Assembly: GCF_022458985.1 (NCBI RefSeq)
Contig: NC_061779.1
Coordinates: 12,941,001 to 13,005,000, forward strand
DNA length: 64,000 nucleotides
Direction: 5' to 3'
DNA from: Mugil cephalus
Lineage: Eukaryota > Chordata > Actinopteri > Mugiliformes > Mugilidae
A program made the position numbers and the translations under genes. The notes beneath the pieces were generated by a model. The model did no database searches. It saw only the letters and a list, made by a program, of their open reading frames with translations, and was not told the origin of the DNA. Shown here piece by piece: positions 7,790-42,700 of the stretch. Numbering within the stretch: position 1 is the first letter of the stretch; every line of letters starts with the position of its first letter.

Positions 7790-10650
7790 AGGAGCTCCGT
7801 GGGGTCAGATGGTGAAGCAGGCCACCAGCTGCTCTCACTGCCTTCGTTTTCTCAGAATTACTATCTGACTCATTACGGGCTAAACAGCCATGTCATTATA
7901 CACTGTTTGGTTCTCTTTGTCTCTCCATGTCGTTTATACTCAGTCTGTCAGTCTTGGATGTTAACATAAGTATATCCACCTATTATTCTTTCTTGTCCAT
8001 GTCAGTAACAATCCATCATTGATAGTTTGTCTTTCTTAGAGACGGTATTCTTTCTCTGGCCAATTTAGGTTATCTTTCTCCATCACTAATCAGTCGTCCA
8101 TCTGTGCTGTTCCCTTTTGGGTTAAATCAGAAACGTTTTTTTTTTTCCGTGCAAATGTTACAAAAAAAAAAGTATCAGCATACTTTTGTAGCACAAAGAT
8201 TTAAAGTGCTGGAAACTACGAGCAGAAAGAAGCTATAAAGTCGTGCAGCTTCAGAGTTGTGAGATGGTTTCCTGTGTCGACACTACACGTGACATCTCTC
8301 ACACTAAATATAGTCCTTGGATCTATTGTTGCTGATACTGACGTTCTTAGTCATGTTTTAAGTTCTTTATTTTTTTGAGGCCTTTATTTTAGTCGTTTAA
8401 AGTCCTGTCATCGCTAATTGCAATAATTTATGTCCTCTGCAAAGTGTTGCGTCACCGCACCAAGTGTGTGATGGCAGATCTCCATGGCGACACAGAGAAG
8501 ATTGACAAACAGTGCGTATAATGAATGCAATTCTGTGCGCAATGTGTTGGCCCATAGAGCAGAGCTGACCACGATGATGCAATCGCTTGGCACGGTGCAG
8601 CCCCTCAGTGCTCCCGGGATCAGTCATTCTATCAGCTCGAAAGCAACGTGCCAATGTGGGGTACGCCTTTACACTCAGGCACTAGCGCAAACATGTTGAT
8701 TGAATTACATCATTTTGTTATATACCAAAAAATGTATCTAACAGATGTAACCCTCTACGCTACTTTTGTGTCTCTTTTCTCCTCACGTAATCTGATGTTT
8801 CCTGTTGTCAGATGGTTTAAAAAATTCGGCATTTTGGCTTGTGCAAGATCACAGTCAAGCACAGGTCCTGAGGATGACGGAGAGATGTGAACGGAGAGCA
8901 GCAGCAGTCCTCGACTTATTCTCCTTTCCTTCTGACCCAGTTTTTCTCCCTTTGTTTCCACTCTTATTTTCCCCCAACTTTCTTCTCATTTCTTAGTCCC
9001 CGAGTCCTTGGACATTTTGAAACATCTTGAGAGAGTGGTCATTTGGCGGTTCATTATTTGTGGTTGTCCTCTCAGCAGTGGGGTTGTGTTTCCAAAACCA
9101 ATAAACAAACTCTTTTAATGAGATTCCTGGAACAGCAGTTAAGTGTTGGCCTAAAAAAAAAAAAAAAATGTACTGTTATCCAGATGCTGACTTGCTATAC
9201 ATATGTTCTAACATGTAAATGGATGTGCAGTGGTAGCAAGACACCTGCAGTAGACTTTTAGGAAATCTTTTATCTGTCCGAAACTGGAGTGTGTTAAATT
9301 GTTTATCTATATTACACTTGAGGTGTCGGCCCTCAGCTGATAGTTAAACACAGTATCTATGTAGCTCCCAAGTAAAACCAGACGGCACATCTAATAAAAC
9401 ACATAAAGCTACCAGTGATAAGGCTGGTCTTTAAGCAGTCTTCCAATTTGAGGTTGCAGGCCCCTTTTGAACTCCCTATGCTACTTCCCCTCTCCCCCTG
9501 GGCACAGGAAGTAGGAGCAGATGTGTTAAGCTAACGGACACTTTGACAACACTGCCAGTCTGTACGTTCCTCTACCCCTTTTACCCGGAAGTAACAGAAA
9601 CAACCTTTGATGTATGCAGCACATGTGGGCTCGCTGGCAGCTACTGGTTGCAACCGCAAGCTGCTCGCCACTCTCTGACATCTCACATTTAGAAAAACTA
9701 CAGACACGACCTGACTGTGTCACAAAATGTACAGTGACTACCAGGTCCCTTGCAACATCCTAGTCAGACACCAGTTCTTTGACCTTTAAAATGTTATATT
9801 TACCGAAATGATTTAGTTCATCCATTGTATACACAGATACTAAGATTTCTGAAGGCCTCCTCAGTTGGTAAACACATTTTATTTTAAAAGGTGAAAAGCC
9901 TGAGAGAACCCACAACCGCAAAGGCATCAGCATCGGGCTAGAGGAGAAAAGCATCAGTTCCATCTGTCAACATAGTCTGTTGTTTTCATTAAGTATATGT
10001 ATTAAGTGGCATTTCTTTCTCTTTGTTCTGCACCCTTTGTTGGCACACCGTGTTTATCTTCTTTGTTATGTAACTGACATGGTTTCCTTTCTGGGCTGCT
10101 AAATTGGCGACCTCTAGCGGTGAACACATGTCATTACACCGACCCTTTGAAGGAACACAATGTTTTGGAACTGAGGACACACTCCCTCCCCCTTCTTTGT
10201 TTCTAGCACGTGCAGTGCAACACATCTGTAGCTGGACTGATTGTGATTGGCTCGTTCCAGATCAAAAACATTTCTTTTTGTTTTCAGTCCTTATCGGTTT
10301 GCCCTTATCGGCCTCAGACAGAAGAGACCTGTAACCAAGCAACGCCTTGAAATCCCAGGCATGGGCAGCATCACTGTTGAGTCATTCCTCAGAGTGTGGG
10401 AACAGAATGGCGCATGATTTTCTCAGCTAATGTAAACAGCTTATTTAGCGGCGGACTATTCGACCACTTTACTGTGTTTTTTAAAACGTACTTTGTGTGT
10501 CACTTAAGTTTCCCTTTGTGTGTTGTCAATACTAAATTACAAATACAATGAGATTAACAAATTAACAAATATTTTGTTCTTGCTACAGGGGAAAATAGTT
10601 ATAAACAGCAGGAGATGTGCTTTGAGTGGGAGAGAGTAGGTGATGGAGGG
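7790..10650. other. Intergenic region upstream of fam107b
   Basis: No gene supported on either strand. It has A/T homopolymers (for example 8,161-8,171 and 9,153-9,168) and otherwise unique-looking sequence. Regulatory content for fam107b is possible but nothing specific stands out. Confidence 0.6.
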
Positions 10651-10731
10651 AGAACAGAGAGAGAGAGAGGGAGGGAGGGAGGAAGGGAGAGAGGGAGGGA
10701 GGGAGAGCTGTATGAGAGCGTAGCTATAAAA
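10651..10731 (+). promoter_or_regulatory. fam107b promoter: GA-rich tract and TATA box
   Basis: A polypurine (GA/GGGA) tract at 10,651-10,708 is followed by TATAAAA at 10,725-10,731. That predicts a start site near 10,755-10,760. The downstream leader runs to an ATG at 10,886 and a consensus donor (GTGAGT) at 10,929. The spacing from TATA to leader to ATG to donor fits a focused, probably tissue-restricted promoter. The promoter call is inference; the motifs are seen directly. Confidence 0.65.
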
Positions 10732-10885
10732 CAGATGACTCTGAACACCAACCAGCTCAGTCGCGGACAGCTGTGCGGGACAAAGTGTCTCTCCTACGCG
10801 AGGCTCTGCAGCTCACTGATAAACAGGACAGCGTGCTTTAATAGCTTCTCTTTTTGAAAATCTGTCGTGACTCAGAGTAGCAGCG

Positions 10886-13800
10886 ATGGCGACAATGTTC
10901 AGATACCCCGTCTTTCCTCATCTCAAGGGTGAGTTAATCCAAGTTGTGCGATCTTATACAAGTAGATGAAAGCCGAGTACTAAACCGTTGTATGGCTCAC
11001 AGCTTTTAGGAACTTGTTATGATGCATTTGGGGGTTTAATTTCGTGATTGATCATTTAATCACTCTTTGTTTGAAGTACACAATGTGAACCAACAATTCA
11101 GATCAAATTAGGAATACTGTACACAGCAGTAGTTGCCATATACAGTAATTAACTGTGGTGTTATATGTGCAAAAATGCAGTAAATCACAGCCATTTCTCA
11201 GTTTTTTTTTTGGGGGGGGGGTGTTCACATGTGTGTTATGTTCATGTAAATGGAAAGTGATGCAACATAGATATTTCTAGATCAAACTTGTGGAAACGTC
11301 TTAGATAACAGCAGATTGACGAATGAGGTTTTTTCGTGCCTTAGCAGTTTAGGGAGTATTTCACTAACTATCTGTAATCTGGCAAATATATTAAAGTGCG
11401 TCTCTGTGCTGTCCCGTTCTTTTTTATGATCTGACGTGAGGATGAGATGTTCCTCATCGCTCACTCTGGAACGATTATGTAATTCCGCTGCCGAGTCCCA
11501 TCATCACTATAGAGACCATTCAAAAACTCTGTGCTCATGCCAGAGGATCAGGCAGATGCTCATACCAGAGGTTTAATTTCAGAGAATAAAAAAAAATTAA
11601 TAAAACCTTTCCAACACACTGTCACCACAGGGACAAATACTTTGTGTTCTGACCTAGTTGTGGTTTTAGTTTTAATTCTCCCTTTCCCTCCTCCCCTGTT
11701 GATTCAGATCCGTGTGATCCCGGTCTATCGCTGTCACCAGGGAGGAGTGTCATGGCGGAACCGGACTATCTGGACGGAGACTGTGAGGAGCTCATCAAGC
11801 CCAAGAAGCTGATCAACCCGGTCAAGACCTCGCGTAACCATCAGGACTTGCACCGAGAGTTGCTCATGAACCAGAAGAGGTCAGGAGTGGCAGAAACACC
11901 TACACCTTCAGTCCCTCTCGATTACTCCTCTTTTATGATCTTCTTATCACGCAGTAGTTCCGGGGATACTCCTTAATTTACAGCCTGAAGTTTTTATTGC
12001 GGTCTGTGGCGCATGAATAAACCAGATCGACGCAAGGAAAGATCACAAACTTACAATTGGGTTGATAAGGAAGCCACAGACGAATTTATTTAAGTGCCGC
12101 ATACGAATGCAGTTTATTATTTTACGGTGGTTAATCTCCCTTGGTGTCCAACAACATCTTCGCCATGTTTATTTAAGCCAACAGCATCAGGTTTTTCCCC
12201 TACTCAGAACAAGTTAGACACAGGAAAAACTGCACAGACGCTGTCCAGACCCTGGCTAATTCAGTTTCATCTGTATTGATGAGTTAATCCGGGCAACACT
12301 GCTGCTTTCATCTAACTGGTCCTGTATTGGTACAGAATGTACTGATGCTTCTGCCGTGTGTCGGCGTGACTGACTCCTCTCGTCCATTTAACCTCCAGCA
12401 GCAGCAGCGGTATTATATAAAGCCCAGGATATGAAACATTCATAGGAGCTCTTATATAAAAACCTTGAGTGCATTAGCTTGTCAATAATGGGTTTATGTA
12501 AAGGTCATACGTACAGTATGCGCTGCACAGGGTGAGACTGGCCTGGGCACTGACACTGGATCATACATCAGAGGATTTAATGCAGCCCTAAGTGGGTGCG
12601 AGCATCCATGATTGTGTGTCCCTGTGAGGACTAAATGTTTGTATTTTCTCTCACCACACTGTGCCAGCAGCTTTGTGCCCCAACTATAAATAGACGAGTA
12701 AACACACATGCTGTTGACAGCTGTTACACCACAGCAGCGCTGCTCTGTGGTCAGTGAGTGATGCGCTTTTGTATTGATGAAGCCAGCAGTACTAAAGCCG
12801 GGAACAAATTGAAGGAAAAATATTAATAAATAATAGGATTTTCCAGTCTCATGTGCTGCAGAATATTGTTTCTGGTCGTCTAGACAAAGGTAGCGGGATT
12901 CGGAGGGGGATCAGCCTGTTTTGATTGGGCTTTTTAACGTGCGCGGACATACAGAAAGCTTGTCTGCGGTGGATTAGTCACAGTGATGATTGTGGGGAGG
13001 GGTTGGTGGGCGGTTGGGTGGATGGCTGTGTTGGTAGAAGGGGGGAAAAAAAATATGTGTTATGTAATCAAGATTACAAAACTAGCTGAGGGCCTTTCTC
13101 TGCCTCTGCTACCTCAGCAGCAGCGACCCTTCCTACACACATACAGTACGTGGGCGCACATGCAGAGGAATTCCAGAAATTCGGCCGCCAAGGCCACGAG
13201 GCATTCGATCAGACGGCGGTATGGATGTGTGGTGATTTTTAGAGCCCACATTCCTCCCCGTCTGCTGGATGGCATGCACTTACGCGCGTGTTTGGGGAGG
13301 GTCTGCGATCGTGTAAACATCGCCCACTCTGAGAGATGAGAGGAGTCAGCATCTTTATAGCCCGTCTTATTGCCATCAGCGACCTTGACCTTGTCCCGCC
13401 TTTGTGCCCCGAGGTGCTTAAAAACAGCCCGAGCCCATTCCCGCGTTTAACTCTTTGTCCGCTTCGGCTCGCTAAGTGCTTTCACAAGACCCTCGCTGAC
13501 ACGAAAGCGGGTCGTTTAACTGCCGCAGTGACTCCAGTTAACGTAATGCCTCGTTTAAATCAACTCCCACTGCATCTGGGAACATCGTGAGCTTGGTTAT
13601 GTAATCTCCGGGACTTAATAATGCATTCAATTAAGGCGTTGTTGTTGCCAAGTTCAAGTCAGGTAGGCTGTGTTTGCTTTGAGGAACCTGTGCACAGTGA
13701 GACTGTCACTGCAAAGACAAATCGGAGGGAAACTAATCTGGATCATAAAATGAATGAAGGGCGCGGAGACTGAGTTTTTGAGCGAGCTTCTATCCTTAAA

Positions 13801-14926
13801 CTGCTCTTTTTTTCTACTTATGTGACCATAATCCTTTGTGGGCTTTGCACTTCATAGGTTTTTGTCTTTTATAGCTGACTCCAACCCCTCTCTGTTTGCA
13901 TCAGACTTAAGTACTTCTCTACCCAAGGCAGAGGCTCATCCGCAACCCCCAGTTTTAAGGAGTTTGGAGCATTACATAACATTTTTACTCCTCCGCTCAC
14001 AGATTTTACTAAGACGTCTCTATCTTCTCTTTGAGTTTGGCCGCACAAAACTAGGCGGTTATGTAACAAAAGCCACTTATTTCCAAGAGCAATTCAAAGC
14101 GAGGGATGTATTCGCCAATAGTTCTAGGTTGATATTTGAGCATTGAGGGCAAGTATTGAATACAAGGAAAAAAGGGCCCGTGGTTTCAACTGAATTTTCC
14201 AAAATCAGTTCTAGTGCAGGAGGTCATCACGAAGCAGCAATCTCTGACTGGCTGAAAATCAAGACCTTCCTTGAACAAAATTGACATGTTTAATCCAGAC
14301 CTACTTAGAACAGATCTGCACGTCATAGTCGAATGAGGTCACAGTCATCATCTGTTATGCATGCGAATGTGCGCCAGCCTCTGAGTGGCGCTCCGAGGAT
14401 GTTGTTCATCCGGTTTTATTCTAGTAACATGCTGTTTCTGTGATTGATTCTGCACAGGGGTCTGGCTCCTCAGAACAAACCCGAACTCCAGAAGGTTCTT
14501 GAGAAGAGAAAGAGGGAGCAAGTTCTCAAGGCTCAGAAGGAGGAGCAGGAGGCACACCAGAAGAGGAGCGACCTGGAGATCGAGCTCATGAAAAGGCAAC
14601 AGAAACTAGAGCAGGTGAATTACTCGTATAAGTCAAGTGTCACATTAGACATGCACATTTTTAATGTAGTTCACCTTTCACTGTAGAACACACATTCCTC
14701 CCATTCTGACAGATGACATGCAATTAAGTGTTATCTGAATTACTATAACCCATTCGTGTGGACATTATTATATAATATATATTTTACAATGACTTCATTC
14801 CTGCAGCTGGAACTGGAGCAGCAGAAAAATGAGGAAGAACAGGAGAACACCCCCGAGTTTGTGAAGATGAAGAGCAACCTGCGCAGGACCAAGCAGGAGG
14901 CGGACGAGGAGGAACGTACCACCTAA
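10886..14926 (+). CDS. fam107b: FAM107B (DRR1 family actin-associated protein)
   Basis: Four coding exons: 10,886-10,928, 11,708-11,879, 14,458-14,614 and 14,807-14,926, together 163 aa. Exon 1 adds 29 residues in frame (starting MATMFRYP) before the internal start MAEPDYLDG at 11,752, which alone gives 134 aa, close to the mammalian FAM107B length of about 131. Family hallmarks are the [20 protein letters not shown] block, [19 protein letters not shown], and a long charged coiled coil ([21 protein letters not shown]) ending in [14 protein letters not shown]. The family (DRR1/TU3A and HITS) binds F-actin and acts in stress response and cell growth. Paralogue FAM107A is less likely because the blocks match FAM107B better. 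The donor of exon 2 (GTCAGG) is weak but required by the frame. Confidence 0.92.
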
Positions 14927-17034: not shown

Positions 17035-18776
17035 ATGGCTGCCTCTAGACTCTTCCGCTCCCTGTCTTCCAACTTTTCTACAGTTTTGCCTTTACTTGCC
17101 CGCTCGACGCCGCCTTCCCCGCTGCAGTTGGCATCTAAACCCTATCTCAGAAGGACACTAGCCTCTTCCAGCCGATTATTAGCAGGTACTGCGCCGTGGA
17201 TGTCGTTTAGGGGGGCGTGTGAGCTGACATTTTTGGTAGCGAGATGGTAACATTAGCTAGAGAGAAGGACGCGATAGCAGACTCTGCTGCTCGTCCTTCT
17301 GGTTCTTCCTTTGTTGTGCTCGTTAAGGATCACAAATTCATCTATATGATCTCGCTCTGTTGTGCTATCTTGCAGCACTTAAATTCACAGACAAGCACGA
17401 ATGGATTCGAGTGGAGGACGCAGGAATTGGAACTGTCGGTATCAGCAATTATGCACAAGTAAGTTCACTCCCGTGGCTCGCAAATATTTGTGGCACATAA
17501 ACACACACGCACGCGCACACACTGAACGTGCGAGTTATTTCCTACCTTTGACCTTGCTTTCGGGCACCCGCAGGAGGCTCTGGGAGATGTAGTTTACTGT
17601 GGACTGCCAGAGGTGGGGACACAGCTGGCTCAGCAAGGTATGAAGTTCAATGCACACTTGATTATTAATGTGAAGACGTCTGAAGAAAACTCTGCTTGTT
17701 CAGACTTTATACCAGGAAATACTAATAATCTAATTTAAATAGAATTATGAAATTCTGTGTAATCTTATCCTTGTTTAGTCAGATGATCTTTACTTGCTAA
17801 TCGTGTGATTTGTGTATAGGTATTTCATTAGTCAGTTTTGTTAATGCATCAAAAATTTCTTAAAAAATTAGTATTACTTGAATAGGTTTTTTATAACAGC
17901 TCGTATGGACTCGTTTTTTAACAATGCATGCATCAGCTATAAAGCAGTTTATATACTTGATAATGTTATGTTTACCTCTTGCTAAGTATAATGATGAGAA
18001 ATACGTTGTTAATATCTGACATCTGTATAGCCGCAGAATGAGTTTTGAGCCTGAAGTGTTAAGGATAAGCGAGACTTTATTTCTGACATCTGTTGCCGCA
18101 GATGAGTTTGGAGCTCTGGAAAGTGTAAAGGCCGCAAGCGAGCTTTATTCTCCTTTGACTGGAGAAGTTGTAGAGGTCAATACACTATTGACAGACAACC
18201 CCAGTCTGGTCAACAAATCATGTTATAAAGATGGTAAGCACTCCCATCAAATACATCGTCTAGTGTGTGGAGAAGCCAAGCAAAAATGTACTTTGTGTTG
18301 ATGTGGAGAGCTTGAACAGGTGCAGCTTGTTACTAAAATACTGTTAATATTATCTTTGGAACAGGTTGTTCTCGCGAAAAGGAATCTGTTAAGTTTGAGG
18401 AGTCATGAAAAATATCTGTATGCTTTTCCAAATAAATGCTCTCCTTGAACTTTTTCCCAAAAACAAACTGATTGCAAACTTGAAACATGCTGATTAAAAA
18501 AAGTAACTCACTGGAGGGTACCATGTTTGGACAGTAGATGGCAGTAATGTCACATAAGTCTGACTAAACCTATAGCTGTAGTATAAATTCATTGAATTAT
18601 ATTTCCCACCATTTTGATTATTTTGTTTGTGACAAAAAAAAATCCTTAGAGCACATTCTGTATCTTTCCAACAAATTCATACCAGACTTTTAGCTATTTC
18701 TCACAGACAGCAATAGCTTAATTTAACAGGCAAATATAAAAATCCACTTAAAAAATTACAAAAAGGGTAAGTTGGG

Positions 18777-18807
<31 letters not shown>

Positions 18808-19426
18808 GGCAAGCACTCTTCTTGCCCCAGTTGTTCATTGCATGAATATCGTCTGCTATCATTACAAGATAATTAACTGTGAGCACTAAGATGGAACAAG
18901 CATATCGTTCACCTTTCATAACACAAGCAGCTCCGGCGTCTACCAGAAAAGCCTCCAATACTGGAGTGTGAAAGCTTAGCAGTCATGCATAATTTCAATA
19001 AATGATGTGTGTTAAATAAAGTGTATTCAACAATATCTTAATACAGAAAGTGTAAATTATAGTTCAGATAGTTGGTGGGGTCATTTTACCTGGAAAATGG
19101 CCATCGCCCCATACTTCTGTCTTTTATTTTTCCAGACTGACTCATGATGTTGAGATTAAAGCTCTATGGGGTTCATACCATTTGTTGCAGCATTTGTTGT
19201 TCTTAGTAGTGCTGAATGTGATTCATAGTGACCTAAAACCTTTGCACAGAAGTTGATTTTACTTGTAATAAATGGGCTAAACTATCCTTGTCTGGCATTT
19301 TAACAATATTTTAATCTATTTACAACAGGTTGGTTGATGAAGATGACTATTGCCAACCCAGCTGAGCTTGACGCGCTAATGGATGAAACGGCATACGAGA
19401 GATACATCCGCTCCATTGAGGACTAA
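17035..19426 (+). CDS. gcsh: Glycine cleavage system H protein, mitochondrial
   Basis: Five exons: 17,035-17,185, 17,376-17,458, 17,574-17,637, 18,102-18,233 and 19,329-19,426; 175 aa, matching the usual vertebrate length of about 173. The first 45-50 residues are rich in Arg, Ser and Leu without acidic residues, typical of a mitochondrial presequence. The mature part begins near [15 protein letters not shown]. The lipoyl attachment loop is [15 protein letters not shown], with Lys109 as the modified residue by family alignment. The protein shuttles the aminomethyl group between the P, T and L proteins in the matrix. The C-terminus ([19 protein letters not shown]) is intact. All junctions are GT-AG and in frame. 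Intron 4 carries a 27-base T run (18,777-18,803). The protein looks complete and functional. Confidence 0.97.
18777..18803 (+). repeat. Poly(T) run of 27 in gcsh intron 4
   Basis: Uninterrupted T27 on the plus strand. It may be the poly(A) tail of a minus-strand retroposed fragment, but no body of an element is recognisable next to it. Confidence 0.9.
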
Positions 19427-20132: not shown

Positions 20133-23100
20133 TTACCCTATTACGTTTCTTGACCTCTGGGTAGAGTTTAGGGAACTGACGGCACCACCAGGCACTATCG
20201 AGTATCTGTCCTTGGTTGTTGGAGTTCGTCTGGCCCTGCCCCTGCCCTGAGACGAAGGAGTAGTGGGGAGCCCCTCCATTTTGCGATAATTACTCTCCAA
20301 CCTCTCCTTTCTTTGCGCTCCCTCATAGAGTACACTGGCAGTAAAGTCCCTCTCATTGAGAAAGGCGATGGTCTCGTCCCTCTTGCGGCTCACATACCCT
20401 TTTAGAACAGCGTTGTAGGGGTTTGATGCCGCGTCTGCGTCCGGATCTTCCAGCTGGTGTTTGAATTCCATGCGGGTGATAACAGGCAAGAGGAACTGCT
20501 TCCCTTCCTCCACCACAGCGCCATCCCTGTGCGATAACCCCAGAGCCTCTGAGACCAGGCGCGGGGGCAAAGGCACCATGTCACAGCCTGAGCGCTTGTC
20601 CACATAATGTTGAAACTCTTGACGTACCAAAGCCACATCTTGCAGAGACTGATTCCTCTGCTTCTCTAGGTCTGTAACTATTCTCTCAGGATACGTCTGG
20701 CCCAACACCACACCTAAAAAGTGAGGACAGAAGAAACAGTGTTTTAAGGTAAGGAAGTCTATGTTGTATGTAGAATGACTGAAAAACGGATAACCTTGTG
20801 ATAGATTGCTGACCTGCTCGCCGCAGCATTGACGCAGGACATTTCCAAGGTTTGTGAACGAGGTCCTCAGGCAGATCTTTAAGTTCAGGACACCATTTCC
20901 TGACATAGTCGCCGTTGGGGTCACAGGTCATTGCTGCATCAACGGGATGCATGACAAAGTTCCAGTGATCCAAGCCACACATGCCCCCATTCTGCCACAT
21001 CATAGCATCTATGGCAACATCTGCATCCACCAGGGTGTCCTAAACACAGGTAAGTGTTGGTCAGAGGGCAGTACTTTTGTGATGTCTATGTGACGGGAGT
21101 GATGCCTATCCAGCTACACATCTCACCTGGAACCAGCGATATCCCTCTTGCCAAGGCAGATGGAGATAGGCTATGAGGAAAGATGCAACCACGTGTCTCA
21201 TGTAGTTGTTCATCCAGCCTGTCAGCCACAGCTGCCTCATGGCCGCGTCCACCAGAGGGTAGCCCGTTTTACCTCGCTGCCATGCCTTGAGGTGTCCACG
21301 GTCGTTGCTCCACCGCAAAGCCTGTAAATACAAGTGGTCAATCAATATCACAAATTTTCACTGCAAACAACTGAAGTGCTGAATTCTATAATGTATATGA
21401 ATGTGCAAACAGCATGTTTGCTTCTAAATTCAACCTTATATGGAGGTCTGAGGGATTCCCAGGGGAGGTCGGGGAAGAGCGTTAGCTGCCAGTAAGCCAA
21501 ATCTCTCCACGCGAGCTTGCGCTGAAACTTTGGGGATCGGCACCGTGCTCCTTTTGCATCCCACAACAGCCATCGTGGACTGAGCTGACCAAAGTGAATG
21601 TATGGAGACAGGCAGCTGGTGTTTGGAGCATCTGCCCTGCCTGATTCTTTTTCATACCTATACACGCCTGCAAAAAGTGGAAGCAATTGTACGGTGCTGT
21701 TCAGTGCTACAGTTCTTAACATTCCTCCAAATGCAGTTCACAGTGTTCGTTCGAGATGTCTCACCATCATGAAGAAAGGCCTCTAAGTGGGCATGTGCTC
21801 CTTCTTCGCTAAAATCCCAGGACTTTCTGATGTTGGCTGCCCAGTCAATCTGAAAAATATTGAGGATGCCATGTTAAACTAGTCTTAACTGTATTTGTTT
21901 AGAAGACATTGTTATAATGTTCTCACTAACCACTGTGCCATCCTTCCTGCGGGGCATGCGCGCCAGGCCTAGCGTGTCCAAAGGGACACCCTGTGGCCAG
22001 TGGGCAGGTGTGGGGAGAGACCCTGGAGGGTCCAAGGGAACCCCTATTGCCGACCCCGGGTTCTGTCTGCAGCAGCTCATGAAGTGAGACACTGAACCTA
22101 TTCCTGCAACACAGAAGAAAAAAAAATAGGCTTTATTGCAATTTAGCCTGCTTTGCAAGACAAACTTTAAACACAAATACTTTAGCAAGTTTAGCGGCAA
22201 ATTCACTTAATTGTGACTAACCTCGGAGGCCCACACCCTCTGTGGTGACAGAGTAAGGGTCTCTGAGACAGTAAGAGTGGAACATCCTGCATTCAACACC
22301 ATTTTTCTGCAGAGCTGCAACCACCATATCATCCCTCTCCTTCAGCCAGGGCTCGTACAAGGCATTGGCAAGCACTGTTCTTGCCCCAGTCTCCTTTATA
22401 AGCTCCTTAAGTGTTTGCAGTGAAGATCCAACCTCACTGCCCTCTCCATTTGCTTTGAGAAAAACAAGATGGCTGCCAATACGCTCTAGGGATAGAGCAA
22501 AGCAAGACAAGGCCTGATGGAACCAGTATTTACCTGTTAAAAAGGGAGGACACGATAAGACATAAGTTGGGACACGTGCATAATAATTATCTTTACCTGA
22601 ATGGAAGAACTTTATGGATTTCATTAATCACTGATTTGTTGGGCAACTTACAAGCTCCACCCATTGCCACGGTAATTCCTGGTCCCTCCTCTTCTTCAGG
22701 GCTCCAGATGAAGACAGGGATAACAGGTGCACCCACCTCCAGTGATCCCAAGAGTGCAGGGTTATCACACAGCCGCAAATCCCTCCTGAACCACAGCAAT
22801 ACCGGCGGAGGGGCTGATGGAGAACCAGGCAAACCTACAAGCTGTTTACCTTTTCGCCGCTGCCGTCTATTCTTAGATCGTTTTGATTTCTCTGACTGAT
22901 TCACATCTCCCTCACCCATGCTCAGGTTACTGTTTCCTGCTGCATCTTGCTCCCAAAATGAGGCAGGCTGTCCGGAGACACACACGGTCTGACCTGTCCC
23001 AGGGGTCTGCTTATTATTTCTGTCAAGATGTGCACTCTTCTGAAGCTCCATTTCTTGGAGAGGTGAACTTTCCTTGCCCCAGGGTCCACTTTGAACCAAA

Positions 23101-25075
23101 TGCGTATTTTTTCTCCTGTCAAGTACATCTGCTTCCTGGCTGCTTCGATGAGACTCGGATGCTGAATCCAGCTGAATGGAGCTGCTCTTATTGGCTCTGT
23201 TTCCAGGCTGCAGGAGTTGGGACTCTTGGCTGGGCATTGACAGCTGTCGATCTTTCATTTCCAGAAGAGAGAGAGCCAAAGCAAGTTCCAGTTCATCATC
23301 TTCCATCTAGAATTTAATTAAGACAACTCGTTATGATCATTACATTTAAAACCAACATTTAGTTGTTCAACAAAGTTAAAATGGCAGGAATTATACAATA
23401 GCTACATAACTGTGAGTTAGTGGTTAGAGCACCAGCTTTGGGACCATAAGGTCACTGGTTCATTCCCTTCTATGTTCATGACTGAAGTTAATTGTGCAAG
23501 CATCTAAAATACCTCCTACTACTCCCCAGACTCTATGCATTTGCAGAGATCAAATTTATTATATCTGTGCAAAATCTGGGTTGCTATTGGAGAAAGCAAT
23601 ACACTAACCGTTTTCTATGTTATTTGACTAAGTTTAATGTCGTTCATGTTTTTTGTAGAGACCTAAATGTTTCCACTTATTCAAGCTGAGAAGCTCAAAT
23701 GAGAGGTTGTGTGCAGTCAGATGTCAATTTACCAAACACATTATTGGGAACAGCATACCAACAATGGGAAGGGCCACGCAGTTGAATCAACAGCTTTTTA
23801 ACGCAATGTAACACTGCCACCCGATTGGCTAGTTTTATTGGAAATAAAAGTGCCTGTTGAGTTTATACTCGAATTTTTTTTTAATACCAGGCTAGTGCTG
23901 CTGATAATTGTATGAATATATGGGATTAGTTTATGCGCATAGTTTAGTAAATACTTTATTAAGTACTTCCTGTCATTGTTAGTAAAACTCTGCATTAACC
24001 TGTGCAGAAGGATAATCAGCGAGAGTATGACAGGTGTGAGTAGCAATGACATAACTCAACATCAGCGCCATTTTGCATTAGCTAATCGGTATTTTTTATT
24101 TATTTTCGTAAACAATAATATCACTATTATTCTCTCATGTTTCAGAGCTAAGTTGTCAAATGTTATCTTTGTCATATGTGAAACAAAAAAAAATGTAAGT
24201 GACAGTTGTAAATATCAAAATAAAACAATGGCAATTGGTAACTTACTAGCTAGTAACGTTACTAGTTACGTCAGGTGTTTTGCTAATTGGTTACCCACAA
24301 GAACTTCACTCACACATTTAATTTTGGGTTTATTTATCTCCGCTAATAGTAATAGCCAGCAGGTTAACTTTTTTAAAAAACTGTAATTATAAAAACGCAT
24401 ATTTATTTTTGTTTGTTTATATATTTATTTATTTATTTTTAGCGGGGCTAATGTGAAGTGTTTTTGAAGTTAATGTATTAGTATATCAATGTCATGAAGA
24501 TCAAATTTTTTTAAAACAAACACGATTTTCAGGACAAAACTTGAGTGCGCATTTGTAGAAGGCGTGGTTACGGCACTGCTATTTCACCTAGCAACAAAAA
24601 ATACTAATTCCTGATTGGCTGATAAATCGTTTGCCCAAGCAGAGCAGTCTAACTTCGCTTCATCTAATCACAGATAACTAAACTCATCTCTTTTATATAC
24701 AGGCTATGTTACAAATGTGCGACAAGTTTTATCACTTCTCAGTATGAGAAATGTCATGTGTGCATATTGAGTTGCATGTGTCAGAATTGAGAGCCCTTTA
24801 ATAATTAACCACAACAATTAACTGAGGTGTACACTTGTATCAATAAAGATCTCACTGACCTTGGAGAAATATTCCTTGTAGATGGAGGTGAGGATGCAGT
24901 GCAGCTGGCTGTTGGCTGTGGACAGAGGCCGGATGAGGGACGGGAACTGTGAGCGGGTCTCCTGGTGCCCCATTATGGACACACACATCGCAAAGAACCC
25001 CTCTGGATCCTCTCGACCCACCAGCACGTCCTTTAACATCTCTGTCACCACGGAATGAGCAGCGGATGGAGGCAT
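20133..25075 (-). CDS. UIM-containing plant-like cryptochrome/photolyase
   Basis: Nine exons on the minus strand: 24,860-25,075, 22,652-23,306, 22,222-22,533, 21,931-22,103, 21,765-21,849, 21,435-21,667, 21,127-21,321, 20,814-21,039 and 20,133-20,713. All junctions are GT-AG and the 891-codon frame is open. Residues 1-72 are an unrecognised domain. Residues 74-88 (EDDELELALALSLLE) fit the ubiquitin-interacting motif. A low-complexity linker ends in a basic cluster, KSKRSKNRRQRRKGK (about 211-225). The photolyase homology region starts near 240 (PPVLLWFRRDLRLCDNPAL). The FAD region shows SCLSPYIHFGQLSPR, GKTGYPLVDAAMRQL and NNYMRHVVASFL. Trp-triad positions are present in HLKAW, LPWQEG and DAMMW. 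The residue facing flavin N5 is Asp (codon 21,007-21,009), as in plant cryptochromes. It is not the vertebrate Cry1/2, 6-4 photolyase or Cry-DASH type. It is probably a flavin blue-light receptor or divergent photolyase in the nucleus. Confidence 0.88.
23405..23470 (+). repeat. tRNA-derived SINE fragment in cryptochrome intron 1
   Basis: An A-box-like element (TTAGTGGTTAGAGCA, about 23,418-23,432) and a B-box-like element (GGTTCATTCCC, 23,457-23,467) sit at tRNA-like spacing. There is no acceptor stem or full cloverleaf, so it is a tRNA-related SINE head and not a tRNA gene. Confidence 0.6.
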
Positions 25076-28000
25076 CTTCAAACGCAAGGTGACGATAAAG
25101 TATCGGCTCTGATGCTGTTACAGTTTTAATCCCACAAACTGACCCACCGAGCTGAACGTACGCCCATAGATAGTTACCAAACAACAGCTGATTTTTAGTT
25201 ACACAAGCCACGTGTTTGGCGTTTTGTAACCAGCAACGCTAAAGAGCTGTAATGGTTAAATATCACCAGTAGGGGGTGGACAAGCCCAATAAATAAGCCC
25301 AGTGAAAACCAAACCATCGGCTGTTTATTCACAACATGTGATTAACACATGGGAATCCTTGTTTACATTTCATTAATCTGACATAAGGGTATAGGGATAT
25401 AGACTAAGAAATCCTATAGGAATGCCAAGTCTTTTTTTTATTATTGATTTCAGCTTCTCTGTGTCTATTTCAGATCACGTCCCTACCAAATCATACCTGT
25501 CAATGTTTCATGACCAAGGTCCCCACAAGCTTCATAACAAACAAATTCGTTTAGGTCAATTTACACTGAAATATATAAAAGAAACTTTTATAAATATTTG
25601 AGGTGTGACATCTGCTTCAGAATAATAATTTTATAAGTTTACTAAGCCTCCTTGACAGGAATGTGGTCCCTTTTCAAGTGCACACTGTGATGAGAGACTG
25701 AAAAACAAAGCCAAGAGACAGACAGTGTACCCAGCAGTGGCTGTTTAATCATGGTCTGTATTCATGCTGTTGAAGGGTTGCTAAGTAATTGATTTTTTTT
25801 AATGAGACCATGGATAAGCTTTTGAATTTACGCAGCAGGGGACGATGATTTGTGACACTTGTGGACCAAACTATAAAATGCCTTGTATAGTTGTCAAGCT
25901 TCACTTGTAATAATGTTTTACAGGAATTACTTACCAGTATTTTGTTGATGCTAAAATATTCTTGAGTATTCACCAGAAATGTTACCCAAGGCTTCACACA
26001 CAAGGACAAAGCATGTCAGTTATTACTATCGGACTATTATGTGAAAAGTAGTCAGAGGGTATGATGGCGAGATGTGTTAAGAGCTGTGGTATGTGAAGAG
26101 AGCAAGACAGAAAGAGAGAGAGAAAGAGATTGAGAGAGAGAGGGAATCAATAGTGTTTAGACAGAGAAGTGGAGTCTAAGTGTGTGATCAATAGAGAGCA
26201 GAGAGGAGAGATTAGCTGCTTTTCTCTCTCAAACTAACACTGACAAATTGGTGAATTGGTGTATCGGCCCTTGGGCTAAACGGATTGACCTGCTGTTTCC
26301 ATGTTCCACCGTGTACTGTCAATAAAGATCTGTGTTCATTGTGGCTCTCAATGAAGAGAGCGAACGAAGCACCAGAGGGGAGAAAAGGGGAAAGGAAGGA
26401 AGGAAGGAAAATGGAGAAGCCAAAAGGTAGAGAAGCAAAGTGCAGCTCAGGTGCCTGTGTACCCTTGGTACTCACAAAATCTCCACACCTCTGTCTCATT
26501 AACACGTACGCGCACTCACATGTGCATCCCCGTGCACACCGTTATAAAACCATAATAACGTCTCCAAGAAAATTAATGGAAAGACAGATTAAAAACTAAG
26601 TGAGGAGAAACGGGCCACTGGTGTAGCTATTTGCAACTCATAAATCATTCTGACACACCCACGCGCATGTAGACACATGCATAGACCTACACACACATAC
26701 ACACACACACGCATACTGTAATTAACCACAGGCTATTTACTCTCTCCTGCTGTAAATTAGACATGCAGACACAGTTATTACATTAGGGGGATCTGCCATG
26801 CAGAATGCTAACAGGAGGAGGAGGGGACACTCGTACACACAACAACTGGCTCATACAAACATAAACACACACACACACACACATGTACACAAGAAAGGGG
26901 GTATGGAAGAATCATAGACTGACGGGAGTGAAAATGAAGCTGCAGCACAGAGAATAGGGGCCCCCAGCTCTTTGTTCCCTGCTGCATTTCATTATCTGAA
27001 ACGCCAGCCAACACACACGACACACACAACGCACCTCCCCCTTCCCTAAAGCTGTCTGCCTCCACTCCATGCACAGAGAACGAAAAAGAGAGGAAAATAG
27101 AGATACTGCGTCAGTACCATTCATTGGCATCTGGACCAGGGCATGACAAACATGGCCGCGTGGTCATCCTTTTCAGATCCACCAGTTCAGACGCTGCGAG
27201 AGGTGACCGGTTTCCTTCAACCTTGGCTGGCAGAAAGCCCTACTCCATAAATTCTATTTCAAGCGGAACAATAGGAGATGAGGACTTGATTAAAACAAGT
27301 ATTGATACTCTGTCTTGAGTAGCTTGTCTCCATTTAGTTCATTTGAAGTAGTTTTTTTCTGGCAGTCTTTCTGTTAGTGTTTGTGTGTGTGTGTGTGTGT
27401 GTCCTCTGGTTCCCCCTGCCTCTCTCACCCCTCTCTGTCCCTCTGTTTTCCCACGGTGATCGATAGCTCATTACAGTCATTGACTGCGGCTCATCAGCAC
27501 CTGTTAAGGTCTGGAGAGACAGAAAAGGTGCATGTGCGTCTGGTGGAGTGTGTGTTGTGATGCAAGCCCACCGATAAGTATAAAGATCGGACTCGAATGA
27601 GTCAGGGGTGAAGTTTGATGTTTGAAAGGGAACATTCTGATTCACATCCATTGTTGAGGGTGTGTAGTTTGTCGCTGCTTTATGGTCTGTGGTCTTGGGG
27701 AACATCTTATTATGCAACTCACGTGGGTACCATGGTTTGTTGCTATGGTGATTGCCAAGGGAGCCCGAGTATTATAGGTGTTTATCCTAGACAGGAGCAA
27801 GGCTACTCACTGTCTATCAGGACACGGTTCAATTTAACACAACGTTTGGACCACACGTTAAGATCAACACAGTCGCAGAGGGACAAAGGGAGAACACAGA
27901 ATGCGACACGAACAAGTGTGGATTTGATTTAGCAGATTATTCAGTATTCATATTCCTGACAGAAAGACCTTGTTCAAACACTCAGCTGTTGGTTTAATGC

Positions 28001-36723: not shown

Positions 36724-39700
36724 CTATGCTCTGTCTCTCTCCCCTGCCCCTGCTGACAGCTCAGCCTGCTCCCTCTCAGCAGTGTCAGAGCTCAGGCTCC
36801 TGGCCCTCTTCTCCTTAGCTCTTGCATTCTGGAACCACACCTGCAAAAAACGTTGACAAGAATAAATATGTATCGCAATCTATTAACACTGGTTTGACTG
36901 TTTGTGTCATTGATGCAGACTTTTCTGTTGCATTGTTTAATATAAAACAATTACCTGCACCACACGGTGAGGCAGTCCTAGCTCTTGGCCCAGTGTCTCA
37001 CACTCGTGACGGTTGGGTGTGCGGTGGCTCCTGTAGAAGTCTTTGAGCTGGAGTACCTGGAAGTGGCTCATCTGTGTCCTCTGGCGCTGCTGCTGGTGGT
37101 GGTGGTGTTGCTGCAGAGACTGTGTCTCACCCCAGTCTGAGCTGGGACCCCCAGATCCTTCAGGACTCAGACATCCTTGGTCAGGCATACTGGAACTTTC
37201 CTCACATGGGTAGTCCTCATCATCTTCCTCGTAGTCGTCCTCCTCCTCTGGGTTGTTTAGATTAGTGCTTGTAGGCAAAGAAGTCAGAGGTGGCTTCATA
37301 GTTAACTCTTTGTTACTGAAGACACAGCCAAGATTTGGGATATGGTGGGAAGAGATAGATGGGCCTGGTCTGTCCGTGACAGATGGCATAGACATCCCAG
37401 TCTGCCCATTGGATCCATTACTCATTGATAAATTGTAGCCTGCCCTTTCAGCTTCTGCCCAGTGGCGTGACCTCATGTGGGCATCCAGGGCACTCTTTAC
37501 TTTGAAGAGAGCCCTGCAGAATGGGCAGCGCAGATGGTTAAAACCTAAGCTGAAACTGGATCCTGGCCCCATTGACCGGAACTGTCCTTTTCTCTCTCTT
37601 GCTCGTGTATTCTGAAACCAGACCTGTAAGAGAAAGCCATGTGTTTCACAATTCAGCTAAATCAACAATTCATTATTTTCGTTGTATTATCTATACATTA
37701 CCTGAACGACACGTCTTGTTAGGCCCACATCTCGCGCGATACTTTCAAGAACTCCTCTGGTAGGGTTAGAATCCAAGCTGTAGCGCTGATACAACACTTC
37801 AAGCTGTTCTGGAGTGATGGTTGTTCTCTGACGTTTATCCCTTCTGTGTTCCTCCTCAGCGTCTCTACAGCTCCTTTGGCCCTCAAAACTGGTCTCTGAT
37901 ATGTGCTTTGTACTCTGCTTTAACTGTGTCAGGGAATTGTTAAGGTTGTTGCTTGAGTGATCAGAGAGTGTGTTCTTCATTTGTAGGCTGTTTAAGTGTG
38001 AAATCAGAGAGTGTGTGGGATTAGGGTGGATCTGGGACATAGCGCCTGACAGCATTTGGCTGGCCATTAAGGTGTGGTTGGGATGTAGCATCATGTAAGG
38101 CATGGTTCGGTCTGTGAAGCCAGAGTGGAGGAGCTGCACCTGGGACTGAGCAGCCAGGAGATGCCTGGTCTGATGTTCTTGCCATAGCTGGAATGATGGC
38201 AGGGATGCTGGGCAGAGGCTGCACTGGAACTGAGCCTGAGTTTGGAGCTGGGATTGTGGTTGTGTTTCGGTGGACAGGCAAGCTGTGGCATCAGGCAGCT
38301 GAGTGTGGCTTGTTTCTGACTCGGGAGCAGGAGGGTGGTTGGTTGATGCATCACCAGACTTTTCAAGGGCTTGATCAGAAAGAGGACTGTGTGTACGCTC
38401 CTGCTCTGAATGAGACACAGACAACATGGCGGGTAATTGGTTTTGAGAAGAAGAGGCAGCGAGAGGCTGGGGTCTTTCTGGAGCAATTTGTGGCGGAATC
38501 ATGGCCTCAGGTTTCAGACAAGACCCCGATTTCATGGTCAGAACAGACTCTTTATGGTGGATGTCTGCATCCGAAATTCCACTTTGAGTATTAACAGGAG
38601 CTTGGCTGTCGTTGGCCTGTGAAGAGGTTGTTTTATCTTCTTGTTTCCTTGTAGCAGGTTCTCCATTGGTGGTTAGAGGCTCACTTTCTGTACAATGAGT
38701 GGAAGAATCAAGGCCAGGGGAGTCAGGGTGGGTATAATACTCATAAGTCAGATCCATGGAGTTTTCATTCTGAGAGTCACCTTGTCCTTCATCCTCACCG
38801 CTGTTATCATGATTATCATCATCATTCTTGTAGTGGCCATTTCTGTGTTTGCGTATCTTATCAAGCTGGTTCTTCCCCTCCAATCCATCATCTGTCCCGC
38901 GGTCTTGGTTTTTACGTGCTCTCTGCCTAGCATTTTGGAACCATACAACGATGACTCTGTTAGGGAGAGACAGCAGAGCAGATAGCCTGTCATATTCCTC
39001 CTCTCTGGGGTAAGGAGTGGCCTCAAACACCCCCTGCAAAGTCTCAAGCTGTTGCTCTGTGAAGCGGGTTCTAGAAGAGCGTTTGCCCCTGTGGGACTCT
39101 CCTCTATACTGGTCCATTGTCTGGGGCTGTGGAGAGGTGTTAGTCGGAAGTCCTGGGGACAGTGAACACGGTGAAAGTGTAAGAGGCTGATTTTGCACTA
39201 CTTCCTCTCTGGACTCCTCCAGGGCTGTGGTAGGGGGGTTATTAAAATTGTAAGGGGAATCCTTGTCTCGCTGGCGCTCTTTAAATAAGGTGTTGCGGAA
39301 CCAGTGCTTGATGACTTTGTGAGGCAGACCAGAAAGAGCAGACATTTTGTTCATCTCTTCATCGCTGGGGAGACTGCTGATATCAAAGTGTTTTCTTAGA
39401 ACAGACAGTTGCTCTTCAGATATTCGGGTTCGGGTTCTCTTACTCTGCTGTTGTTCAAGTATTGAGGGGCTCTCTTGGCTTTGCTGTCCTGTCTGGATGG
39501 GGCTAGGTTGGGATGGTTGACCCAGCAATGCAGGATTGAGCTGTGGAGGTTGACCTAACAAGGCTGGGCTGAGCTGAGGTTGCTGGGCAAGCAGAGCCGT
39601 ATTAAGCTGTGGCTGTTGCCCTAGCAAAGCTGGGTTAAGTTGAGACTGGTACAGTTTTGCCAGCTCAGGATTCACACTTGAGTCTAACCAAGACTGGGGT

Positions 39701-42700
39701 TGGAGGGACATAGACTGCATTACAACTGGAGGGAGGAGAGGCAGCTCCATGGGGAAAGGAATTGGTGGTAATGGAAGCTTTGGTAAGGGCAGTGACGGTA
39801 TAGGAAGCTGAGGCAACGGTAGAGGGAGCATTGGTATTTTAGGTAAGGGAAGAGGTATGGGGGATATGGTTTCAGAAGTAGCTGTAGAAGATGTGCTCGG
39901 GATGGGGACCTCTTGTTTTGGAAAGTCTTGAGGTTGAGAGGGAGAAGGAGGAGAAGGAGGAGCAGGGATAGTGGGCGTTAGGTCTGTAGTTGTAGCTGTA
40001 GTTTTAGCCTTGGGATCTGAAACCAGTGGTAAAGGGGGAGCTTCAAGGGTTTCCACTTCAGACTTAACTGGTTCCATTCCTGCATCTGATTCTGAGCACG
40101 TTGCCAGAGCTGGAGTTGCAGCTTGGGTGCAAACAGCTGAATTCTCTGCAGATTTAGACTGAGCGAGTGGGTACATTTGGTCATACTGCAGCCTGTATTC
40201 TCTGGAAAACCTCTCCAGTGCAGCAGTGGGGAACACCATGCTATGGATGTATTCCTGGTGGCTTTTTAAAATCAAGGCATCTGAAAAAAACTTGCCACAG
40301 TCTCTACACTTCTCTCCCTTTTCACAGCACTTTTTCCCATTGTTTGCCAATTCTTTGTCTTTGTGTTGGTTGTTCTCTGGTGGGAAGCTATCATTCACTC
40401 CATTAACTTTTACTCCTTTGTTATCCTTGGTAATGTCTTCCATATTTCTGTTATGTAATTTATTAAACTCATCTTTTTCCTCCTCTTCTGCCTTGTTCAT
40501 GTCAGAGAAATCTTGCTTATTTAGTATTATTTGAGTTGCTATTTGCTGCTGGTGCCTGTGTCTACTTTGTATATACTGCAGTGCCAACTCATAGCCATAA
40601 CTCTGCAACAGTGTTCTAAGAGGTTCACCGTTTGCAGCAGCATATGGCACTCTAGGAGGAGGACACTGTGGTCCAAGAAGGTTAAATGAAGAAGATGCCC
40701 CTTCCTCCTTCTGACTCTCATTCTTAACATTAGGAACATGCATTTTGCCTTTTTCTTCTCCAAGACTAGAAGTGCTGTGTTCTCTTCCCATTTGGTTGAT
40801 GGAGGGCCCACCACAAACTGTATCAACCTTGGCTTCACAACACAAATCTTTTGGGTGGTTGACCGACAAATTTGAACTTTGTTTCTGGGTTTGTTTCTCA
40901 CTTGCTTGAGGCTCCCTTTCAGCCTCTGCCTTAACCTGATCTTTCGGGATGGAGTTGGTCAATACTAAGTGACTAAGTTCTGGGCTCTTAACATTTAATT
41001 CTGTGTTAAGATTCATGTCTCCTGACAAGTAAAAGGGCAGAAGAAGTTGCTGCTGCAGAGAAAACAAATTGTCCGGTGCCAAGGAGAAGTGTTGTTTAAG
41101 GAGATTCTCTGGTAAAGAAAGATGCTGCATCGTTTGAGACTGGAGCAAAGCTGTGTGCTGTTGTAACTGAGCTTGAACTTGTGCCTGTGCTATCTGCTGC
41201 TGTTGTATTAGCATTAGCTGGTTCCTTGATGCTAGAAGCTCTGCCACTCTCTTTTTAGCATGCTGGCTGTCTATTGTGTTCGAGACGGTTGGTTGGGCCT
41301 CAGTTAGCAAGCCTGGCTTCTTTGTGAGAGACAAACTCTTGGATTTCTCGTCTCTGGTGTTAGTAGTCTGCGTAGCAGCGGTGGGGGCTGACACTGGAAC
41401 AGTTGCAGTAGATGCTGGGGTCTGTTGAGCTGGGTTTTGAGCAGCACGAGCTCTAGTTTGATGAAGGACAGAGCGAAGATGTATGTCCAATGTGGAGCTC
41501 TGACTGTAGCCCACACCACACAATCGGCAGCGGTAGGGTCTAGGATCTGGACCACGGGGAGCCTCTGAAGAAGCAACACTTGTGCCAGAGTCCTGCATGG
41601 CTCGTCTGGCCCGGTGGAGATGGGACACAGAGTTATAGTGGACTAGAAGAATCGTTTTTTGTGTAAAAGACTCAGAACATATGGTGCATTTATAGGGTCG
41701 GGATGGATCCAGATAACGGTCTAATGAGGGGTTAGAGCTCTTTTTGACAAGAGAGCTCAAACTAGGTTCTGAATCTATCTCCTCAAGTGGCTTTTTATCT
41801 GGTTTTGTCAAATCCTCCTCACCTCCATCATCTTCGGAGACCACATCCTTCTCTTTAATTTTAATTTCTTCATTTTTTTCTTCCTTTCCCTCAATGCCCA
41901 ATGCTTCATCGTTAATCTCATCATCATCATCATCATCATCACCCTCTCCTGCTTCTTGACCCACTTGAGGGGACAGACTAAAATCTTGCTGAACTGAATT
42001 TGTATTCTGCTCCATGTATTGCACAGTATGAGGTGGCAAGAGTGTATTCAATCCCTGTGTGTTGTCCAGCTGTGAGTGTGTGTTCTGCATGTGTCTCTGC
42101 AGGGCCTCCTGACTGCGGCATTGTCTAGAACAGAGGGGGCACTCTGTCGCCGCCCTCATGGCATGGTACTGCCAGTGCAGCTGGAGCTTCTCCTGAGTGG
42201 GAAACGCCAAGCTGCACCTGCTGCAACGGAACCGGTAACCATGACGATCTGAGAGGGGAGGCGGTTCGCTGGGAGGGGAGGTGGGTGGTGAAGAGGGGGG
42301 GATCTGAGTCGGGGACTGAGGAGCTAGTCTGCCATTGGAAGGGTGAGTGGTGTTGTCTTCTAGGGGTGGGGTGAGAAGAGCTGTGACATCTTTGGGTGCG
42401 GCGACGTCTTCCTCAGTGTTCTCCACTGAAATGCCTGTAAAATGCACAAAAACATCACTGTGAATTAGTTCTTTCACAGGTTTTTGATTTTAACAAATGG
42501 AGCACGACATAGATTGTTATTATTGCTTCTTCAGTTATTATCTAAATACCAACCTTTATTTTTCGGTGAATCGGTCAGGGCACCGTTCCCATTTTTATTC
42601 TTCGTATTTTTTTTCTGAATATCATCTGTGTCCAAGTCTGTCTGTAGTTCCGTCTCCAGCTGAGGCTGCAGTTGTTCCACGGATGGTGCGACCTAGAGGA

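What the first reader, a model, noticed from the sequence alone, without database searches (positions are those of the whole stretch)
22652..25075. Ubiquitin-interacting motif fused to a cryptochrome/photolyase in a fish
Exon 2 opens with residues 74-88, EDDELELALALSLLE, which match the UIM pattern (acidic x4, hydrophobic, x2, Ala, x3, Ser, x2, acidic) at every defining position. A 72-residue N-terminal exon of unknown fold precedes it. A 130-residue low-complexity linker and a strongly basic cluster (about 211-225) lead to the photolyase domain near residue 240. Known vertebrate Cry1/2, 6-4 photolyase and Cry-DASH proteins start almost directly with the photolyase domain. A light- or flavin-sensing domain tied to ubiquitin binding suggests coupling of photoreception or DNA damage sensing to ubiquitin signalling. 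That coupling is inference.
Basis: partly seen in the sequence, partly recalled or inferred. Interest (0 to 1): 0.8.

Follow-up and report, generated by a model that had tools for sequence, protein, structure and literature searches.

The report
Fish CRY6 cryptochrome with ubiquitin-binding helix
The gene is the fish version of CRY6, an already described plant-type cryptochrome of fishes and frogs whose extra front end carries a ubiquitin-binding helix, so the fusion is real but was reported before, and what the protein does in the animal is still unknown.

Summary
A nine-exon minus-strand gene (25075-20133; all eight introns GT-AG) encodes 891 residues: a 72-residue first exon, a UIM-type helix at 74-89, a disordered linker, a basic cluster at 212-226 and a photolyase-homology domain from 241.

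It is already known. The protein has all three PCRY-like motifs of Deppisch 2022. Okano 2023 (PMC11520951) describes this architecture in Xenopus CRY6: an N-terminal extension with a four-helix fold, overlapping UIM/IUIM helix and NLS/NoLS. They report the UIMs conserved in Takifugu and zebrafish CRY6, and pull-down of K48 polyubiquitin by the frog peptide. Frog and window helices share LELAxALSLxE.

FAD-site residues align with those of plant cryptochrome, so photoreception is plausible.

The parts
24860..25075 (-). Exon 1, residues 1-72; predicted four-helix domain (helices 5-18, 24-35, 37-54, 56-70); corresponds in position to the tetrahelical domain of the CRY6 N-terminal extension
   Evidence: searches (exon; AlphaFold2, single sequence, best model pLDDT 83.2, other four 53.3-62.0), PMC11520951
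23256..23303 (-). Ubiquitin-interacting helix, residues 74-89 (EDDELELALALSLLEM)
   Evidence: frog orthologue peptide binds polyubiquitin (PMC11520951)
22652..23306 (-). Exon 2, residues 73-290 and the first base of codon 291: UIM helix, low-confidence (probably disordered) linker, basic cluster, start of the photolyase domain
22845..22889 (-). Basic cluster, residues 212-226 (KSKRSKNRRQRRKGK), counterpart of the CRY6 NLS/NoLS (frog residues 212-221)
   Evidence: Sequence; PMC11520951
20133..22533 (-). Exons 3-9: rest of the photolyase-homology region (Pfam DNA_photolyase 241-389, FAD_binding_7 528-724) and C-terminal extension to residue 891
   Evidence: motifs VGLR 391, WRDLAY 534, MWQNGG 637
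25199..25214 (-). Candidate light-responsive promoter element: E-box CACGTG followed after 2 nt by the D-box-like TTGTGTAA, about 124 bp upstream of the start codon
   Evidence: compared with the zebrafish per2 module (PMC2759001) and the cry1a D-box (PMC3516543). The pattern was chosen after seeing the sequence

Best explanation
The gene is a fish orthologue of cryptochrome 6 (CRY6, also called PCRY-like or pCRY), a plant-type cryptochrome of aquatic animals. Its N-terminal extension contains a small four-helix domain, a UIM-type helix that binds ubiquitin chains, a disordered linker and a basic NLS/NoLS-like patch. The photolyase-homology region most likely binds FAD and works as a blue-light receptor of the plant-cryptochrome type. 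The most likely way it works is as an adaptor: light-driven change in the flavin domain alters access or localisation of the ubiquitin-binding extension and so acts on ubiquitinated proteins. Shown here: gene model, domain order, family motifs, and FAD-site residues by alignment. Shown in print for the frog orthologue: polyubiquitin binding by the helix, and nucleolar targeting by a repeated copy of the basic patch. Inferred: FAD binding, light response, and any coupling of the two (I give the light-coupling step alone about 0.35; the confidence below is for identity and the ubiquitin-binding helix).
For: All three PCRY-like motifs are present: VGLR at 391, WRDLAY at 534, MWQNGG at 637. Deppisch 2022 found MWQNxG in 100 of 103 PCRY-like sequences and in none of the other 2144. 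NCBIfam's best model is plant cryptochrome, 280.8 bits, below its cut-off of 603.85. Pfam gives FAD_binding_7 at 3.8e-68. Residues aligned to AtCRY1 D396, W324, W377 and W400 are D634, W562, W615 and W638 (roles recalled). Domain order and spacing match XtCRY6: tetrahelical fold, UIM helix core at about 84-97, NLS/NoLS at 212-221, PHR alignment from Asp244. The XtCRY6 helix and the window helix share LELAxALSLxE. TrCry6, described as closer to plant CRYs than to other animal CRYs, is induced by blue light in Fugu eye cells, LL/DD ratio 4.17 (PMC5394683, passages).
Against: The closest solved structure by score is annotated as a DNA photolyase (4u63, 297.8 bits), ahead of AtCRY1 (243.3 bits), so some photolyase function is not excluded. 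The Pfam UIM score is below the curated cut-off. The local alignment score against the XtCRY6 peptide (41) was exceeded by at least one of 500 shuffles (mean 24.5, sd 3.6, maximum 44), so the short peptide alone proves little; the collinear architecture carries the argument. No orthologue sequence was available to build a tree. [quoted passage not shown]
Confidence: 0.93

Rival explanations
1. The photolyase domain is mainly a DNA-repair enzyme, and the UIM brings it to ubiquitinated proteins at damaged chromatin.
For: The best PDB match is a DNA photolyase, 4u63. In Fugu cells Cry6 falls in the same light-responsive group as CPD-Phr, [6-4]Phr, CRY-DASH, XPC, HELLS and Neil1 (PMC5394683, passages). 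An NLS-like basic patch is present.
Against: The residues at 4u63 chain positions N399, E301 and W405, which I take from recall to be repair-site residues, are D634, D536 and N640 here. The Asp is shared with plant cryptochrome. GFP-XtCRY6 was cytoplasmic in HEK293 cells.
Confidence: 0.12
2. The UIM resemblance in this fish is not functional, or the mature protein starts at Met73 or elsewhere, so that the extension differs from the model.
For: The Pfam score is below cut-off. Exon 2 begins with an ATG (Met73) that could serve as a start in a transcript lacking exon 1. No RNA data.
Against: The strict pattern was met in 0 of 10000 and 0 of 20000 shuffles. The core is conserved with the frog peptide that binds polyubiquitin. 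A Met73 start would still keep the UIM. The frog cDNA was cloned with primers in the untranslated regions, and its protein has the extension.
Confidence: 0.06
3. The exon-1 domain is a harmonin homology domain (alpha-alpha hub), not a KaiA/RbsU-like fold, and could dock an amphipathic helix, perhaps the adjacent UIM itself.
Confidence: 0.12

Closest known systems
Xenopus tropicalis CRY6 (XtCRY6; Okano et al. 2023, PMC11520951, parts 1-4 of 5 read)
   Same: N-terminal extension of about 200 residues with four-helix fold, UIM-type helix with LELAxALSLxE core, basic NLS/NoLS near residue 212, plant-type photolyase-homology region
   Different: Different species. The residue after SL in the helix is L here and Q in frog, and the acidic run is longer here. 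Ubiquitin binding was shown only for the frog peptide
Takifugu rubripes CRY6 (TrCRY6; PMC5394683, passages only) and zebrafish CRY6 (as cited in PMC11520951)
   Same: Fish members of the same family. UIM1, UIM2 and IUIM reported as conserved (PMC11520951). TrCry6 is blue-light induced
   Different: Sequences not held here, so no residue-level comparison was made
PCRY-like subfamily (Deppisch et al. 2022, PMC9498864, passages and one section), including oyster CgPCRY (PMC5224872, passages) and diatom CryP
   Same: All three PCRY-like motifs. CgPCRY is also reported to have an extended N-terminal region
   Different: Whether molluscan or algal members carry a UIM was not found in the passages seen
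Plant cryptochromes CRY1/CRY2
   Same: Best NCBIfam model (TIGR02766); Asp at the recalled flavin N5 position and Trp triad aligned
   Different: The matched structures align only from residue 233-242 on, so the extension has no counterpart there; score far below the plant-family cut-off
Hrs / Eps15 double-sided UIM and Rabex-5 inverted UIM
   Same: Helix type, as compared by Okano 2023
   Different: Other proteins (endocytic adaptors, Rabex-5), not flavoproteins; no likeness outside the helix claimed

Membership tests
CRY6 / PCRY-like cryptochrome | Photolyase-homology region (DNA_photolyase plus FAD_binding_7) | tested here: met
   Pfam 103.4 and 229.3 bits against cut-offs 26.6 and 27
CRY6 / PCRY-like cryptochrome | Subfamily motifs pl1 VGLR, pl2 WRDLAY, pl3 MWQNxG | tested here: met
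   Found at 391, 534 and 637, three of three; motif definitions from PMC9498864
CRY6 / PCRY-like cryptochrome | N-terminal extension of about 200 residues with four-helix fold | tested here: met
   240 residues before the Pfam domain; four helices predicted for exon 1 (single-sequence model)
CRY6 / PCRY-like cryptochrome | DI-UIM helix with ubiquitin-binding core | tested here: met
   LELAxALSLxE shared with XtCRY6 peptide; binding itself not tested here
CRY6 / PCRY-like cryptochrome | NLS/NoLS-like basic patch before the PHR | tested here: met
   KSKRSKNRRQRRKGK at 212-226, by eye
CRY6 / PCRY-like cryptochrome | Grouping with CRY6 in a phylogeny | not tested
   No animal CRY6 sequences at hand; scans of viral and prokaryote contigs found no relatives
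UIM (PF02809 / PF23625) | Score above Pfam gathering cut-off | tested here: not met
   8.3 and 10.7 bits in the full protein, 13.4 and 16.3 for a 30-aa piece, cut-off 21
UIM (PF02809 / PF23625) | Acidic run, hydrophobic, Ala, Ser, acidic pattern in a helix | tested here: met
UIM (PF02809 / PF23625) | Binds ubiquitin | not testable with these tools
   Shown only for the frog orthologue in print
Harmonin homology domain | Sequence match to HHD profile | tested here: not met
   -2.9 bits, below most shuffles; four of four left-out HHDs recovered; hhalign 0.1%
Harmonin homology domain | Five-helix HHD fold | tested here: inconclusive
KaiA/RbsU domain | Right-handed four-helix superhelix of that type | tested here: inconclusive
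   No KaiA/RbsU chain was compared (one search aligned 16 chains); no Pfam match for exon 1 up to E 10
CPD photolyase | Repair-site residues (4u63 chain positions N399, E301, W405; roles recalled) | tested here: not met
   D634, D536 and N640 at the aligned positions

The most novel reading that the evidence does not exclude
The N-terminal domain of CRY6 is a harmonin-homology/alpha-alpha-hub-like module that holds the adjacent UIM helix in cis, and blue-light excitation of the flavin domain releases it, which would make CRY6 a light-gated ubiquitin receptor.
Probability: 0.06. Interest if true: 0.75.

Novelty: already known. Interest (0 to 1): 0.22.

Why it matters
The fusion is real and, with the published frog, Takifugu and zebrafish proteins, conserved from fishes to frogs. 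The question it raises (does an animal flavoprotein gate ubiquitin signalling with light?) is a fair one, but it is already posed in print. This case adds a complete gene model from a fish, an independent match of the architecture, the FAD-site residues, and two leads to check: a promoter element and an alternative fold for the N-terminal domain.

Tried and rejected
UIM as chance: rejected for the strict pattern (0 of 10000 and 0 of 20000 shuffles), though the bare core is common by chance.

Exon 1 against Pfam: no family up to E 10. Residues 1-93 against PDB sequences: only two chains of a TSC1 N-terminal domain at E 0.9 and 1.6, not credible.

Harmonin homology domain: raised by the VIA-align match, then tested by sequence with negative result. 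Kept as a lead only. KaiA and RbsU chains are absent from the VIA list, which says nothing since only 16 chains were aligned.

Related loci: viral contigs with the full protein, 2 pattern stretches and no relative; genome contigs (prokaryotes) with the PHR part, 7 stretches and no relative. These collections are not of fish genomes, so the absence says nothing on CRY6.

Promoter: TTAYGTAA without mismatch gives 11 sites in the window, none within 10 kb of the gene start. The E-box/D-box pair at 25199-25214 matches only when a D-box variant is allowed. E-box plus TTRYRTAA within 20 nt is expected 0.06 times per window and found twice, but I wrote the pattern after seeing the sequence. With one mismatch to TTATGTAA on either strand within 20 nt after an E-box, three placements at two E-boxes were found; mean 0.45, largest 2, in 60 simulated windows. 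CACGTG alone is not enriched (11 found, 8.41 expected), nor is TTGTGTAAC (2 found, 0.86 expected). The sigma-70 scan is not meaningful in a fish.

Literature searches for UIM or ubiquitin with cryptochrome/CRY6/PCRY-like. Harmonin homology domain with cryptochrome: no paper.

Full report
Observation. On the minus strand, exon 1 (25075-24860) and exon 2 (23306-22652) join in phase 0. With seven further exons (22533-22222, 22103-21931, 21849-21765, 21667-21435, 21321-21127, 21039-20814, 20713-20133) they give 891 residues with no internal stop, and all eight introns begin GT and end AG (one search had exon 3 one base short, corrected). Residues 74-88 read EDDELELALALSLLE. The strict UIM pattern appears in 0 of 10000 shuffles of the protein and 0 of 20000 shuffles of residues 1-240. 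The bare core appears in most shuffles of the whole protein (7438 of 10000), so the acidic positions carry the significance. Pfam lists UIM_2 and UIM on this stretch but below the curated cut-off. Exon 2 alone is predicted as one confident helix at residues 74-95 followed by mostly low-confidence sequence.

What it is. The domain from residue 241 is a photolyase/cryptochrome. Against solved structures it scores best with the DNA photolyase 4u63 (297.8 bits) and then with plant cryptochromes (243 bits and lower). NCBIfam ranks plant cryptochrome first, below its cut-off. Deppisch 2022 (PMC9498864; [quoted passage not shown] The window protein has all three, at 391, 534 and 637.

The same architecture is in print. 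Okano 2023 (PMC11520951; parts 1-4 of 5 read, and passages) calls this family CRY6. They report that XtCRY6 has a long N-terminal extension found in no other CRY group, with a tetrahelical domain they liken to KaiA/RbsU, an overlapping double-sided and inverted UIM ('DI-UIM'), and an NLS/NoLS at 212-221. They state that the UIMs are conserved in Takifugu and zebrafish CRY6. They show that the frog peptide pulls down K48 polyubiquitin better than a shuffled one. The window protein matches in order, spacing and core residues: LELAIALSLQE in frog, LELALALSLLE here; the basic patch is at 212-226. An oyster member also has an extended N-terminus (PMC5224872, passages). TrCry6 is a blue-light-induced gene in Fugu eye cells (PMC5394683, passages).

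How it most likely works. Residues aligned with the flavin N5 partner and Trp triad of AtCRY1 (roles recalled) are D634, W562, W615 and W638, while three residues that I recall as repair-site residues in photolyases differ from those of 4u63 (chain positions N399, E301 and W405 against D634, D536 and N640). This fits a plant-type photoreceptor better than a repair enzyme. The ubiquitin-binding step is supported by the frog experiment and by conservation. The step from light to ubiquitin binding is inference. Okano 2023 lists chromophore binding and photosensitivity as untested; in the frog, mRNA was highest in gonads without a significant ZT0/ZT11 difference, and full-length GFP fusion stayed in the cytoplasm. 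A 2023 mollusc paper calls the function of PCRY-like largely unknown (PMC10733189, passages).

Promoter. An E-box CACGTG at 25209-25214 is followed by TTGTGTAA on the minus strand, about 124 bp upstream of the start codon. Zebrafish per2 has a light-responsive module of E-box and D-box (PMC2759001, passages), and the cry1a D-box is a variant, GTTGTATAAC (PMC3516543, passages). The match is post hoc and untested.

Verdict. Novelty: already known. Interest is low except for the open question of light gating.

Noticed in passing
18020-19420, + strand: Exons of the glycine cleavage H protein gene (GCSH; e.g. [43 protein letters not shown] and a last exon read by eye), tail to tail with cry6. Recognised by eye, not by a search.
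   Followed up: no
11653-14686, + strand: Exons resembling FAM107 ([10 protein letters not shown] ... [52 protein letters not shown]). Recognised by eye.
   Followed up: no
10066-14066: Seven of the window's 11 exact TTATGTAA (D-box core) sites fall in this 4 kb around the FAM107-like gene; 3.35 are expected in the whole 64 kb. Only the site at 13060 overlaps a reported direct repeat, a two-copy family at 73%.
   Followed up: partly
36937-48091, - strand: Long open frames with C2H2 zinc fingers and homeodomains (239, 1600 and 567 aa), a ZFHX-type gene. Recognised by eye.
   Followed up: no
60075-61874, + strand: Exons resembling calumenin/reticulocalbin (EF-hand protein). Recognised by eye.
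   Followed up: no
27710-27725, - strand: Second E-box plus D-box-like pair, CACGTGAGTTGCATAA, 2.6 kb upstream of cry6; its first part resembles the zebrafish per2 module cacgtgagttgtatga printed in PMC2759001.
   Followed up: partly
23306: Exon 2 begins with an ATG (Met73), so a transcript lacking exon 1 would still encode the UIM-cryptochrome without the four-helix domain.
   Followed up: no
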